A stretch of 64,000 nucleotides of DNA from Candidatus Xianfuyuplasma coldseepsis. Lineage in GTDB: Bacteria; Bacillota_I; Bacilli_A; Izemoplasmatales; Izemoplasmataceae. Positions 13,229-17,838 of the stretch are shown here, in pieces. The position numbers were made by a program, and so were the translations under genes. Under the pieces are notes generated by a model, which made no database searches, was not told the origin of the DNA, and saw nothing but the letters and a program-made list of their open reading frames with translations. Each line of letters starts with the position of its first letter. Position 1 is the stretch's first letter. The stretch lies in contig NZ_CP048914.1 in NCBI RefSeq assembly GCF_014023125.1, positions 1,888,698 through 1,952,697 of the forward strand. Direction: 5' to 3'.

Positions 13229-14317
13229 CTATTTCTTATAGTTTTTATTATAAAACTTTTTCGTTCTGACAACAACACTTTTTCGTTTTCCACGAATATC
13301 AACCGTTAATTTTGTTCCCCGTTTATCATAAGGACGATCAATCAGGGCCAATGCAACGGTTTCATTTGTACTTGGGGACTTGTATCCCGTGGTAACAACA
13401 CCAACCACCGTATCCTCGTGATATACCTCGTATCCATGTCGCAATATTCCTTTATCCATCATGGTTAATCCACATAGTCGTCGCAACGTTCCTTGTTCTT
13501 GTTGTTGTACTAATGCATCACGGCCGATGAAGTCTTGACGATCCAATTTAACCGCAAAGGATAATCCAGCCTCAAGTGGAGTAATGGTAGGGCTTAGTTC
13601 ATTACCATAAAGCGGTAAAGCCACTTCAAATCGTAATGTATCCCGGGCACCAAGGCCAATCGGAGCAATTTGATTGCCCCCTGTAACTAGCAATTGTTCC
13701 CAAATCAACTCAATATCTTGATGGGCACCATAGATTTCAAATCCATCTTCTCCCGTATATCCGGTTCGAGATACCAAGAATGTCATTCCATCAATGGGTA
13801 TCATTTGGGATGTAAAAAAGGTAATTTGATTCAAGTCGTATTGCGTAAGTTTTTGCAACACATGTTGCGCTAACGGACCTTGTAACGCAACTTCACTAAA
13901 ATTATCCGATTCATTGGTGACACGACAATCAAAATGATTTTGCTCCAATACCCAAGCATAATCTTTATCTACGTTTGATGCATTAACGACCAGTAAAAAG
14001 TGATCTTCAGCAAAGCGATACACCAGCAAATCATCGACAACACCACCATCGGGATAACACATCATCCCATATAACACCTGATGATCATCCATTGCTGCTA
14101 CATCATTGGTAAAAATGTAATCAACAAGGTGCAATGCTTCCTTACCACGAACACATATTTCGCCCATATGCGATACATCAAATAGTCCACATTTTTCACG
14201 AACATATCCATGCTCTTCGGTAATAGAAGTATAGGAAATGGGCATTTCCCATCCTGCAAAGTCAACCATTTTAGCACCTAAATCTATGTGTTTCTGATAC
14301 AGCGCTGTTTGTTTCAT
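13229..14317 (-). CDS. gcvT: Aminomethyltransferase (T-protein)
   Basis: 362 aa. Transfers the aminomethyl carbon from the H-protein to tetrahydrofolate, releasing ammonia. Full length, with the N-terminal MVDFAGWEMPI, VSHMGEI and TGYTGEDGFEIY of the family and the C-terminal barrel (GLGARDTLR, YKSPS). AAAGGAGAGTCGGA precedes the start; the ATG overlaps the stop of the fusion gene before it. Confidence 0.97.
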   Translation of the reverse strand: MKQTALYQKHIDLGAKMVDFAGWEMPISYTSITEEHGYVREKCGLFDVSHMGEICVRGKEALHLVDYIFTNDVAAMDDHQVLYGMMCYPDGGVVDDLLVYRFAEDHFLLVVNASNVDKDYAWVLEQNHFDCRVTNESDNFSEVALQGPLAQHVLQKLTQYDLNQITFFTSQMIPIDGMTFLVSRTGYTGEDGFEIYGAHQDIELIWEQLLVTGGNQIAPIGLGARDTLRFEVALPLYGNELSPTITPLEAGLSFAVKLDRQDFIGRDALVQQQEQGTLRRLCGLTMMDKGILRHGYEVYHEDTVVGVVTTGYKSPSTNETVALALIDRPYDKRGTKLTVDIRGKRKSVVVRTKKFYNKNYKK

Positions 14318-16161
14318 TCCGACTCTCCTTTGAATTGTTTATGTGCTTCATAGCTACTTCGAACCATTGGTCCTGAAGCAACAAACTGGAATCCCAACTG
14401 TTTACCAATATCTTTGTAATCGGCAAATGTCTCTAGCGATATATACTCATCGACTTCACGATGATTTTTCGATGGTTGCAAGTATTGGCCAATCGTCAAA
14501 ATATCACAACCAACTGCTCGTAAGTCTTTCATTAACGAAATCACTTCTTCTTTGGTCTCACCAATTCCAAGCATAATCCCTGATTTGGTTAAGATACTCG
14601 AATCAATTTCTTTCACGCGCTTGAGTAATGTTAGACTACGCTGATAATTGGCACGATCACGAAATCCAGGATAAATCCGTTCAATCGTCTCTACATTATG
14701 ATTAATGACATCCGGTTTTGCATCAACAACGCGTTTAATTGATACATAATCTCCCATAAAATCTGGTACCAAAACCTCAATGGTCGTATCGGGTGCGCCT
14801 TGCTGAATGGTTTTAATGACGTCAACAAAATGACTACTTCCATAATCACCACGTAAATCATCCCTTGTCACGGAGGTAATCACAACGTGCTGTAGTTTCA
14901 TTAATTTTACCGCTCGTAATATATTATTCGGTTCTTCTTTATCCACTGCCAGAGGTCGTCCTTGAGCAACATCACAAAATGCACAATTTCGGGTACACCT
15001 TGTACCGAGAATCATAAATGTTGCCGTTTTATGACTAAAACACTCCATCTGATTGGGACAACTAGCTTCCTGGCAAACCGTATGTAAATTATGCTGTTCA
15101 AGCAATGCTCTAATTTTCTTTGTCTGACGGTTTAAATCTTTTAAATCGACTTTCAAGTAATCTGGTTTTTCCTTTTGCTTTTTCGTTCTTTTCCCAAAAA
15201 TTAGTTCGAGAAATTCACCTCGTTTTAATCCATGAAAATACAATCGAACTCTATGTTGCTTCGTAACATCTACAAATGCTTGACGAGTAAACGCAACATC
15301 ACGAAATGCCATTTCAAACTCACGAACATTCTGTAGACTGAAAAAATCTCCAGTGATTCTCAATTGTTGCACATGATTGTGTTTGACATCGATATGCACA
15401 GTGTAATTACCTGAATCAAATTTCATCGTCCTTTCGAATGAAAACTTGGGATTCTTTCCATAATTCCATTCATCGGTATGAAATTTCTGCTCATATTGGT
15501 GTATACGATCAAGATCCAGCTCTCGTAACGGCATGGATTCTGTCGCAATCTCCTGTACCAGATGTTGATACAGTTCATCCTTTGTCAAATCAGTAATTGT
15601 ACCAATATTGATAACACGACTCTCGACACTGGAAATCGCATGTTTTGTTAATTTGGATTTGTCCGGCGTTAATGCCCCGATTAAATGTTCCATATTTGAA
15701 TCAAATAATATCGTACCATGAACGACTAGCTTATCCTTATATATATATTCAGCGTTGCCGCTAAATTTACGACCGTTAACCAAAATATCATTACGACCAG
15801 TAAATTCGGCATTAATTTGCACCTTGTGCAACGCATTAATAATATGATTTACGTGCGTCTTAAAAATATCAGGATGATTCTTTTTTTTAGTAATGAACGA
15901 AAACTGAAAACACCCAGGGTCCGTATACACAGCTCCCCCACCACTATTCCGTCGAACGACCTGAATATGGTTAGTATCTACATATTCCTGATCCAATTCA
16001 ACACTTGTAACTTGATGACGACCAATCATAACCGTAGGATCTACAGTCCATAGTAAGAAAACGTCTTGATCATGTGAAAAATCTTTGATTAAATACTCTT
16101 CAAGCCCAAAGTAAAAAGCACATGTATGAATCGTATTCTCCGTTGTATCAATATACAGCAT
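14314..16161 (-). CDS. Lipoate-protein ligase / lipoyl synthase fusion (LplA-LipA)
   Basis: 615 aa, about the sum of both enzymes. Residues 1-330 are a lipoate/octanoate-protein ligase: RRNSGGGAVY, GRKFSGNAEY, the catalytic-lysine region DKLVVHGTILFD, then the accessory domain. Residues about 333-615 are a radical-SAM lipoyl synthase: KPDYLKV, the auxiliary-cluster CQEASCPNQMEC (about 362), the SAM-cluster CTRNCAFC (about 390) and the terminal RSSY. Known roles: the ligase loads lipoate or octanoate onto GcvH; LipA inserts two sulfurs into octanoyl-GcvH. In one chain it could scavenge octanoate and finish the cofactor in place (inference). No frame break is visible, and the linker near 320-333 is in frame. 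It leads the gcv operon. Confidence 0.93.
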   Translation of the reverse strand: MLYIDTTENTIHTCAFYFGLEEYLIKDFSHDQDVFLLWTVDPTVMIGRHQVTSVELDQEYVDTNHIQVVRRNSGGGAVYTDPGCFQFSFITKKKNHPDIFKTHVNHIINALHKVQINAEFTGRNDILVNGRKFSGNAEYIYKDKLVVHGTILFDSNMEHLIGALTPDKSKLTKHAISSVESRVINIGTITDLTKDELYQHLVQEIATESMPLRELDLDRIHQYEQKFHTDEWNYGKNPKFSFERTMKFDSGNYTVHIDVKHNHVQQLRITGDFFSLQNVREFEMAFRDVAFTRQAFVDVTKQHRVRLYFHGLKRGEFLELIFGKRTKKQKEKPDYLKVDLKDLNRQTKKIRALLEQHNLHTVCQEASCPNQMECFSHKTATFMILGTRCTRNCAFCDVAQGRPLAVDKEEPNNILRAVKLMKLQHVVITSVTRDDLRGDYGSSHFVDVIKTIQQGAPDTTIEVLVPDFMGDYVSIKRVVDAKPDVINHNVETIERIYPGFRDRANYQRSLTLLKRVKEIDSSILTKSGIMLGIGETKEEVISLMKDLRAVGCDILTIGQYLQPSKNHREVDEYISLETFADYKDIGKQLGFQFVASGPMVRSSYEAHKQFKGESE

Positions 16162-16223: not shown

Positions 16224-16255
16224 ACAAAAAAAACAGAGGTAAATACCTCTGTTTA
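16224..16255 (-). terminator. Terminator of the HU-domain gene
   Basis: AAACAGAGGTATTTACCTCTG followed by eight T on the minus strand, overlapping the stop codon of the gene upstream. Separates it from the gcv promoter. Confidence 0.88.
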
Positions 16256-17788
16256 TTCTTCGTTTACATCGTCTTTGAAAACGTCATCAAACCGGAATCG
16301 AACCTGGTGATGTGCAGGTACAATAATCTTCTCATTTGTTTGTGGATTTACAGCCTCTTTTTCTGGCATTTCGATTGTGGTAAAGAATCCTAATCCAGGC
16401 AATTCTACCTCATCTCGATTAGCCAAAGCTTCTTTTACAACTTCAGCAAAGTATTTTAAAAACTTGTTGGCCTTATTTTTACTTAAATCAGTTGTTTCTT
16501 CCATCAGTTCAATAAAGTCTTTTTTTGTTTTGGTAACAATTTTAGCTTTTTTGGGTTTCTTTGGTTTTGGTTTAGGTTCCTCTTTAGTTTCCTCTTTAGG
16601 TTCCTCTTTAGTTTCTTCCTCAGGTTCTTCCTCAAGTTCTTCCTCAGGTTCTTCCTCAGGTTCTTCCTCAAGTTCTTCCTCAGGTTCTTCCTCAGGTTTT
16701 TCTTCAGGTTCTTCTTCAGGTTCTTCTTCAGGTTCTTCCTCAGGTTTTTCTTCAGGTTCTTCTTTAGGTTCTATTGTGTCCTCAACAACAGGTTCTGGAG
16801 TTGATTCTGGTGCTGGTTCTTCAGCTATGACTTCTTCGACAACTGGTTCTTCTTTTGGTTCAATTTCAGGAGCGACTACCGGTTCTTCACCATCATCATC
16901 AACCAGATCTGTTTCGATACCAAAAGCGTCCAAAAACTGTTTGAATGGTTGGAACTCTACAGTGTTGTGTGCCTCTACATGAACCATCGCATCTACTGTA
17001 GCATCATATTCATCGTGTTCATCAATATGAACTTTCGAGAAACGACCGAAATTTGCAATTTTAACAACATCATCTTCGACCACTGTTTCCTTGATTGTTT
17101 CTAAGAATGCATTGACAAACGATCGAGCATCATTTTGACTAAGTCCTGTTTGTTTTGATAAAAGGATAACCAGCTCCGTTTTATTTAGTTTATCAGCACG
17201 TTGCTTGTGTTCTTTGAGTGCTTCTCTTTCAATTTCATGCTGCTCGATTTGTGCCATTTCTTGTTTCATTTCACGGCGTTGTTCACGTTTTGATTTTTGG
17301 TTGTCAAATGCTTCGAAAACTTTATCTTTGAGGGATACAAAAAAGTCACCAATAGTAGACCAAAAATCATTTAATGAGCGTTGTACAGATTGGAGGATAG
17401 TTTCATTGTTTGGGTTGTGTGATTGTTTTCCTTGGCGTAGTTTCGCGTACAGTTCTTCACGTGATATTTCGGTAATTTCGACCGTTTCTTGTTCTAGTGA
17501 ACGGCGGTATTCCGATACGGATAATAACTTCGATTCTTTATGCGCAAATTCATAGAAGACGCGACCGGTGATAAGAAATATTATAGTACCAAAAAATAAT
17601 GGAAGTAATGAAAAACGGAAAAATGGGGCATCATCACGAATACAGACAAATGTATTCACTGCTTGACAGTCAATTTTCCCAAGTAGCATTCCAAAGAATA
17701 AGTCAATTAAGAATAGGATGAAAAAAATCGCACTAAATATGAATGCTATTTTCATGAATTTTTCATAGAAGATTTGTGTTTTAGACAT
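16253..17788 (-). CDS. Membrane-anchored protein with two HU-like DNA-binding domains and acidic E/P linker
   Basis: 511 aa from the second ATG (5 nt from GAGGTG). Two N-terminal transmembrane helices (about 14-37 and 60-80) enclose a short outside loop with two cysteines (42 and 50 from the first ATG). Then a basic coiled-coil-like stretch (about 165-200), HU-like domain 1 (about 199-288, LNKTELVILLSKQTGLS), an acidic linker of four-residue repeats (EEEP and variants), a basic KPKPKKPKKAK patch, and HU-like domain 2 (about 418-505), which keeps the DNA-arm signature NPQTNEKI. HU1 lacks it. Topology puts both HU domains in the cytoplasm. I infer a nucleoid-to-membrane tether or organiser; no family name known to me. 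Confidence 0.85.
   Translation of the reverse strand: MSKTQIFYEKFMKIAFIFSAIFFILFLIDLFFGMLLGKIDCQAVNTFVCIRDDAPFFRFSLLPLFFGTIIFLITGRVFYEFAHKESKLLSVSEYRRSLEQETVEITEISREELYAKLRQGKQSHNPNNETILQSVQRSLNDFWSTIGDFFVSLKDKVFEAFDNQKSKREQRREMKQEMAQIEQHEIEREALKEHKQRADKLNKTELVILLSKQTGLSQNDARSFVNAFLETIKETVVEDDVVKIANFGRFSKVHIDEHDEYDATVDAMVHVEAHNTVEFQPFKQFLDAFGIETDLVDDDGEEPVVAPEIEPKEEPVVEEVIAEEPAPESTPEPVVEDTIEPKEEPEEKPEEEPEEEPEEEPEEKPEEEPEEELEEEPEEEPEEELEEEPEEETKEEPKEETKEEPKPKPKKPKKAKIVTKTKKDFIELMEETTDLSKNKANKFLKYFAEVVKEALANRDEVELPGLGFFTTIEMPEKEAVNPQTNEKIIVPAHHQVRFRFDDVFKDDVNEE
16590..16770. repeat. 12-bp tandem repeats encoding the E/P linker
   Basis: Units of GGTTCTTCCTCA with single-base variants (AGTTCTTCCTCA, GGTTTTTCTTCA) run for about 15 copies, coding for EEEP-type tetrads. 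Prone to slippage, so linker length may vary between strains. On the plus strand it makes a false serine-rich reading frame. Confidence 0.9.
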
Positions 17789-17806: not shown

Positions 17807-17835
17807 ATTGTACCCTATGAAAATTAAAAAAGCAA
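17807..17835 (-). promoter_or_regulatory. Promoter of the HU-domain gene
   Basis: TTGCTT (17830-17835), 17-bp spacer, TACAAT (17807-17812) on the minus strand, just after the terminator of the preceding gene. Confidence 0.6.
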
Positions 17836-17838
17836 ACA

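What the first reader, a model, noticed from the sequence alone, without database searches (positions are those of the whole stretch)
16253..17788. Membrane-tethered double-HU protein with a 12-bp-repeat E/P spacer
Two helices, two outside cysteines, one degenerate HU-like domain, a long acidic repeat, a Lys/Pro patch and a second HU-like domain with its DNA-arm signature. HU proteins are normally 90-residue soluble dimers. This layout suggests a nucleoid-membrane anchor with a stiff spacer, and an internal HU-HU dimer is possible.
Basis: partly seen in the sequence, partly recalled or inferred. Interest (0 to 1): 0.8.

Follow-up and report, generated by a model that had tools for sequence, protein, structure and literature searches.

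The report
Membrane-anchored protein with two HU domains
A wall-less deep-sea bacterium and about twenty of its relatives carry a conserved protein that sits in the cell membrane and holds two copies of the DNA-packaging HU fold inside the cell on a stretchy spacer, so it may tie the chromosome to the membrane, although the DNA-gripping charges of this copy are unusually weak and nobody has tested it.

Summary
Window 17788-16253 (minus strand) is a real gene of Xianfuyuplasma coldseepsis zrk13 (genome length matches the published 1,958,905 bp). It has two N-terminal membrane helices, a two-cysteine loop, HU1, a 12-bp-repeat E/P spacer, a Lys/Pro patch and HU2. Orthologues occur in 20 of 49 genomes of its family (8 of 17 genera), at one conserved locus just upstream of the lipoate/glycine-cleavage genes, mostly with their own terminators. 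Positive-inside charges put both HU domains in the cytoplasm. AlphaFold gives two HU folds joined by a disordered spacer. Spacer sequence and charge are not conserved; HU2 and, in most genera, the Lys patch before it are.

A cytoplasmic, membrane-tethered HU is well supported. DNA binding is not shown: both domains of this copy have lost the basic arm residues (arm net charge HU1 -7, HU2 -2; soluble HU +5). An obligatory internal HU1-HU2 dimer is unlikely, because orthologues with one or at least three HU domains exist.

Best model: a nucleoid-membrane tether acting through HU2 plus the Lys patch, or through mixed dimers with soluble HU. Other Mollicutes carry an apparently independent 2TM-spacer-HU design, and Bacteroidota carry HU-HU-TM-SPOR. 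New variant of a known kind.

The parts
16253..17788 (-). MemHU gene (511 aa from the second ATG; ORF tool start 17791)
   Evidence: orthologues start at MSK; SD GAGGTGAT just upstream
17693..17749 (-). first membrane helix (hydropathy core, residues 15-33 of the 512-aa ORF; helix 3-35 in the model)
17624..17692 (-). short outer loop with Cys42 and Cys50 (residues 34-56); net charge -1; Cys pair in 16 of 17 proteins scanned
17567..17623 (-). second membrane helix (hydropathy core, residues 57-75; helix 55-86 in the model)
17198..17395 (-). charged helical linker (model residues 132-197, predicted helix of low confidence)
16922..17188 (-). HU1 (residues ~202-290): complete HU fold, acidic arm, NPxT tip lost
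   Evidence: (62.2 bits)
16529..16921 (-). low-complexity spacer (residues ~291-421), predicted disordered over 292-414, net charge -49 over residues 292-415, ending in the Lys/Pro patch
16574..16772 (-). 12-bp tandem repeat, 16.6 copies, encoding (P)EEE-type repeats
16529..16594 (-). Lys/Pro patch just before HU2 (KEETKEEPKPKPKKPKKAKIVT, net +5)
16259..16525 (-). HU2 (residues ~423-511 of 512): complete HU fold, NPQT/VPA tip kept, basic arm residues lost
   Evidence: (85.2 bits)
16231..16254 (-). intrinsic terminator directly after the stop codon
17838..17864 (-). terminator-like hairpin between the upstream B3/4 gene and MemHU
17808..17836 (-). possible promoter TTGCTT-17-TACAAT (read by eye; not listed by the scan)
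   Evidence: sequence; not found by the scan

Best explanation
The gene encodes a membrane-anchored HU-family protein (called MemHU here). Two N-terminal helices fix it in the cell membrane with a short Cys-Cys loop outside. Everything after the second helix, including both HU domains, is in the cytoplasm [inferred from charge rules]. The low-complexity spacer is a flexible or extended arm, up to about 38 nm contour in this protein if fully extended [calculated], whose exact sequence does not matter. HU2 with the Lys patch before it is the working end: it docks on the nucleoid, either by touching DNA itself or by forming mixed dimers with the cell's ordinary soluble HU, which this genome also encodes [inferred]. 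HU1 is a more weakly conserved helper domain. The net effect would be a movable, sequence-independent link between nucleoid and membrane in a wall-less cell [inferred, untested].
For: Two PF00216 domains well over cut-off and two predicted HU folds matching solved HU/IHF structures. Two helices with positive-inside bias in 17 of 17 proteins: N-terminus net +1 to +4, loop net 0 to -6, 3-7 Lys/Arg after helix 2; Cys pair in 16 of 17. Orthologues in 20 of 49 family genomes at one conserved locus. HU2 is the best conserved part (66-78% identity to three relatives, against 37-50% for HU1) and the pre-HU2 segment is basic (median +4) although the spacer charge ranges from -53 to +37. A soluble HU is present in the same genome. 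The same layout arose apparently independently in code-4 Mollicutes with a more canonical HU arm tip, and a MemHU-type HU2 was joined to another membrane module in Izimaplasma HR2.
Against: In this very protein both HU domains are acidic (net -9 and -6) and their arms have lost the basic residues of soluble HU, so direct DNA binding may be weak or absent. The Lys patch is not kept in genera g3 and g8. No experiment, expression data or DNA-complex model was available. Relative placement of the domains is not predicted (pTM 0.23). Most other Izemoplasma genera lack the protein, so it is not essential to the group.
Confidence: 0.52

Rival explanations
1. The HU domains are protein-protein modules, no longer DNA binders. 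MemHU is a membrane scaffold that recruits another partner through HU-type dimerisation.
For: Acidic arms of HU1 (-7) and HU2 (-2), arm deleted in HU1 of G009 and G019, and weak matches to HU-CCDC81 models.
Against: HU2 is basic in HR2, G009 and G012 (+6 to +10), its arm-tip Pro is kept, and a Lys patch precedes it in the main clade.
Confidence: 0.25
2. MemHU faces outward and captures extracellular DNA, which these bacteria are reported to degrade.
For: Cultured Izemoplasma are DNA degraders (PMC8397711, PMC10470597).
Against: Positive-inside charges in all 17 proteins place the HU part inside; the Cys pair sits in the opposite loop.
Confidence: 0.05
3. MemHU is a membrane-bound regulator of the neighbouring lipoate and glycine-cleavage genes.
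For: Conserved position just upstream of lplA-lipA or gcvT.
Against: A terminator follows its stop codon in 14 of 16 orthologues; the gcv genes are present in most family and order genomes without MemHU; HU folds are normally not sequence-specific.
Confidence: 0.07
4. MemHU replaces a lost chromosome-partitioning system such as ParB.
For: Small wall-less cells with reduced genomes.
Against: ParB is present in zrk13 and in most relatives with or without MemHU.
Confidence: 0.03

Closest known systems
Soluble HU (PF00216, for example the zrk13 HU at genome 1621851-1622117)
   Same: HU fold, GFGxF-type core, arm tip NPxT...PA in HU2
   Different: HU is a ~90-aa basic soluble dimer; MemHU has two HU domains behind two membrane helices, with acidic arms in this species
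Bacteroidota HU-CCDC81_bac_1 / bac_2 - TM - SPOR proteins (Pfam PF18174, PF18175, PF05036; HU clades of Burroughs et al. 2017, PMC5499826, not readable here)
   Same: two HU-type domains in a protein with a membrane segment; the Pfam domains were checked in two genomes
   Different: HU domains are N-terminal and adjacent, one membrane segment (read by eye, below the hydropathy threshold used), and a SPOR domain, normally peptidoglycan-binding; MemHU has the helices first, a long spacer, no SPOR, and a wall-less host
2TM-spacer-HU proteins of code-4 Mollicutes (class family f6 here: genera g32, g107, g173)
   Same: two helices, charged and often repeat-rich spacer of variable length, HU behind it
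   Different: one HU only, longer outer loop without the Cys pair, main copy beside mnmG, HU clade of its own
Single-chain IHF (PDB 2IIE/2IIF, engineered)
   Same: two HU/IHF folds in one chain; found by fold and sequence search
   Different: engineered intra-chain dimer; no membrane part; in MemHU an internal dimer is not shown
TonB EP/KP-rich segment
   Same: EP/KP-rich extended spacer following a membrane anchor; weak sequence match only (E 0.3-0.5)
   Different: spacer of MemHU is cytoplasmic and of unrelated origin

Membership tests
HU/IHF superfamily (PF00216) | sequence match over the curated cut-off | tested here: met
   HU2 85.2 bits and HU1 62.2 bits, cut-off 22.4
HU/IHF superfamily (PF00216) | HU fold: two helices, three-strand sheet with beta arm, C-terminal helix | tested here: met
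   AlphaFold model and Foldseek to HU/IHF, best E 5e-7
Functional HU (DNA-bending nucleoid protein) | basic beta arm with intercalating proline | tested here: inconclusive
   HU2 keeps Pro but arm net is -2; HU1 lost the tip, arm net -7; soluble HU of the same genome +5
Functional HU (DNA-bending nucleoid protein) | obligate dimer | not testable with these tools
   domain arrangement not predicted (pTM 0.23)
Functional HU (DNA-bending nucleoid protein) | ~90-aa soluble protein | tested here: not met
   511 aa with two membrane helices
HU-CCDC81_bac - TM - SPOR proteins | HU-CCDC81_bac_1 followed by bac_2 over cut-off, and a SPOR domain | tested here: not met
   bac_1 below cut-off, bac_2 at 35.5 against 35 but PF00216 far better, no SPOR; positive control
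NCBIfam IHF/HU equivalogs | score over the equivalog cut-off | tested here: not met
   best 78.4 against 111
Orthologous MemHU family of Izemoplasma | 2TM + HU(s) at the locus upstream of lplA-lipA/gcvT | tested here: met

The most novel reading that the evidence does not exclude
Wall-less bacteria have evolved more than once a dedicated, sequence-independent nucleoid-membrane tether by hanging HU domains from the membrane on a freely varying repeat spacer (Izemoplasma MemHU; the 2TM-HU proteins of code-4 Mollicutes). In Xianfuyuplasma the tether grips DNA indirectly, through mixed dimers of acidic HU domains with soluble HU.
Probability: 0.3. Interest if true: 0.78.

Novelty: new variant of a known kind. 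Interest (0 to 1): 0.62.

Why it matters
How chromosomes are held at the membrane in cells without a wall is poorly known. A direct HU-based tether present in a cultured organism (zrk13), and a parallel design in other Mollicutes, would make the question testable with one gene, and would show nucleoid proteins being recruited repeatedly as membrane anchors. If DNA binding turns out to be lost, it becomes a clear case of an HU fold reused as a protein-docking module.

Tried and rejected
Single-sequence scan of genome contigs found nothing; the alignment-based scan found nine real relatives, the other six hits being ordinary or unrelated HU. No relatives in viral contigs. ParB replacement was considered and disfavoured. 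Regulation of the gcv genes was considered; terminators and the wide occurrence of gcv without MemHU speak against it. No riboswitch or other Rfam RNA near the gene except a tRNA. Literature searches for membrane-anchored HU found no paper in the held library; the key paper on HU clades (PMC5499826) is not held.

Full report
WHAT IS THERE. The window lies in a 1,958,905-bp single-contig genome; the same length is published for Xianfuyuplasma coldseepsis zrk13, a cultured wall-less Izemoplasma (PMC8397711; lineage). The ORF is on the minus strand, 17791-16253, 512 codons. Orthologues start with M-S-K at the second Met and a good ribosome site precedes it, so 17788 is the likely start.

ARCHITECTURE. 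Pfam sees two Bac_DNA_binding domains; in the genome search HU2 scores 85.2 and HU1 62.2 bits, the soluble HU of the same genome 114.5, cut-off 22.4. Hydropathy gives two helices at 15-33 and 57-75. AlphaFold with ten sequences gives long helices 3-35 and 55-86, an HU fold at 203-288 (pLDDT about 65-77), a disordered stretch 292-414 (pLDDT mostly under 40) and an HU fold at 422-510 (pLDDT about 71-85). pTM is 0.23, so the arrangement of the domains is not predicted. Foldseek matches HU/IHF structures, best E 5e-7. The 12-bp tandem repeat covers 16574-16772, 16.6 copies, score 251.

TOPOLOGY. In 17 of 17 orthologues with a readable N-terminus, the segment before helix 1 is net +1 to +4, the loop 0 to -6, and the 25 residues after helix 2 hold 3-7 Lys/Arg. 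This places N- and C-termini inside and the loop outside. The Cys pair in the loop is kept in 16 of those 17 (absent in G013); G079, read later, also lacks it. Topology is inferred, not measured.

ORTHOLOGUES AND LOCUS. Members occur in 20 of 49 family genomes: G000, G001, G002, G005, G008, G009, G010, G012, G013, G019, G020, G023, G024, G071, G072, G073, G074, G079, G081, G083 (my count; some are fragments at contig ends). They fall in 8 of 17 genera. The locus is constant where it can be read: (ackA - B3/4 protein -) MemHU - (lplA-lipA fusion -) gcvT - gcvH - gcvPA - gcvPB - lpdA. In other genera of the family, gcvT has other neighbours and no MemHU. No member was found in the other two families of the order. 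Among 395 genomes of the class none outside the family matched over the full length. The matched genome contigs records are labelled Izimaplasma/Izemoplasma, Mycoplasmatota, Tenericutes, Bacilli or Bacillales.

VARIATION. Spacers are EEEP-type (zrk13), EP (G002), long mixed repeats (G001), strongly basic (G013, net +37) or nearly absent (G005, G010, G024, G083). HU number varies: only HU2 in MC10 and GMC6, only HU1 in G020, at least three HU2-type domains in G023. HU2 is the most conserved part (78, 77 and 66% identity to G002, G001 and G019, against 50, 50 and 37% for HU1). The 22 residues before HU2 are basic (median +4 over 21 proteins), and in zrk13 only 0.6% of linker segments are as basic. 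In the short-spacer genera g3 and g8 the Lys patch is not kept (net 0 to -4).

DNA BINDING. The arm of the soluble HU of zrk13 is net +5 (soluble HUs of relatives +2 to +6). In zrk13 HU1 has arm -7 and domain -9, HU2 arm -2 and domain -6. HU1 lost the NPxT tip (YDATV); HU1 of G009 and G019 lost the arm altogether. HU2 keeps NPQT...VPA. In other genera HU2 is basic (HR2 +9, G012 +10). DNA binding is therefore an open question for this protein, and direct DNA contact is inference.

REGULATION. A stem-loop with T-run follows the stop codon in 14 of 16 orthologues (12 called by the script, G001 and G019 read by eye; G020 has it 61 nt further on, G002 none). A hairpin separates MemHU from the upstream gene, and a TTGCTT-17-TACAAT promoter can be read by eye, though the scan did not list it. 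MemHU is probably its own transcript, so the conserved neighbourhood does not by itself mean a role in glycine cleavage. ParB is present in zrk13 and most relatives, so MemHU is not a ParB substitute.

PARALLELS. Code-4 Mollicutes of class family f6 carry proteins of about 270-470 aa with two helices, an outer loop of roughly 40-80 aa, a charged spacer that often contains repeats, and an HU domain behind it; all seven g32 genomes have the main copy, beside mnmG where the locus was read, and several have more copies. In an HU-domain tree they form their own clade (99/99), apart from the Izemoplasma tethered HU domains, which suggests separate origins; the alignment is short (92 columns) and the tree program warns of long branches. 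Izimaplasma HR2 has a further protein in which an HU2-type domain (within the HU2 clade) follows a different two-helix module, in a cluster with SipW-like and TasA-like genes (the S26-like reading of its loop is by eye). Bacteroidota proteins with HU-CCDC81_bac_1, bac_2 and SPOR were confirmed in two genomes.

MECHANISM. Shown: two HU-type sequences, two hydrophobic helices, conserved locus, variable spacer. Inferred: cytoplasmic HU, disordered arm, nucleoid docking by HU2 plus Lys patch or by mixed dimers with soluble HU. The main rival is a scaffold whose HU domains bind proteins only.

VERDICT.

Noticed in passing
L126-L137, L156-L164 (genomes G092, G104, G167, G179, G191, G214, G249, G343, G435, G457, G458, G459): Second lineage of membrane-tethered HU in code-4 Mollicutes: two helices, variable spacer, HU domain; all seven genomes of genus g32, several copies in some.
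   Followed up: partly
L067:7077-8219 (-), Izimaplasma HR2 genome (G071): HU2-type domain fused behind a different two-helix module with a ~110-aa outer loop, inside a SipW/TasA-like gene cluster.
   Followed up: partly
L038:10886-12181 (-) (G023): MemHU orthologue with three HU2-type domains on one contig; N-terminus on another contig (L039:3-581).
   Followed up: partly
L047:8135-9175 (+) (G020): Orthologue that ends after HU1; the terminator seen after HU2 in its sister G005 lies 61 nt downstream, as if HU2 had been deleted.
   Followed up: partly
window 14314-16161 (-): Lipoate-protein ligase and lipoyl synthase fused in one ORF (reading from sequence), conserved in several MemHU genomes and absent from this locus in genera g3, g8 and in G019.
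   Followed up: no
window 16377-16982 (+): 201-aa Ser/Gly-rich ORF opposite the MemHU repeat; an artefact of the 12-bp repeat.
   Followed up: no
L076:115-726 (-) (G051): 203-aa protein with a weak HU match (27 bits) and a C-terminal extension in another family of the order.
   Followed up: no
L166 (G455): Two neighbouring ~240-aa proteins with C-terminal HU and no membrane helix in another code-4 genus.
   Followed up: no
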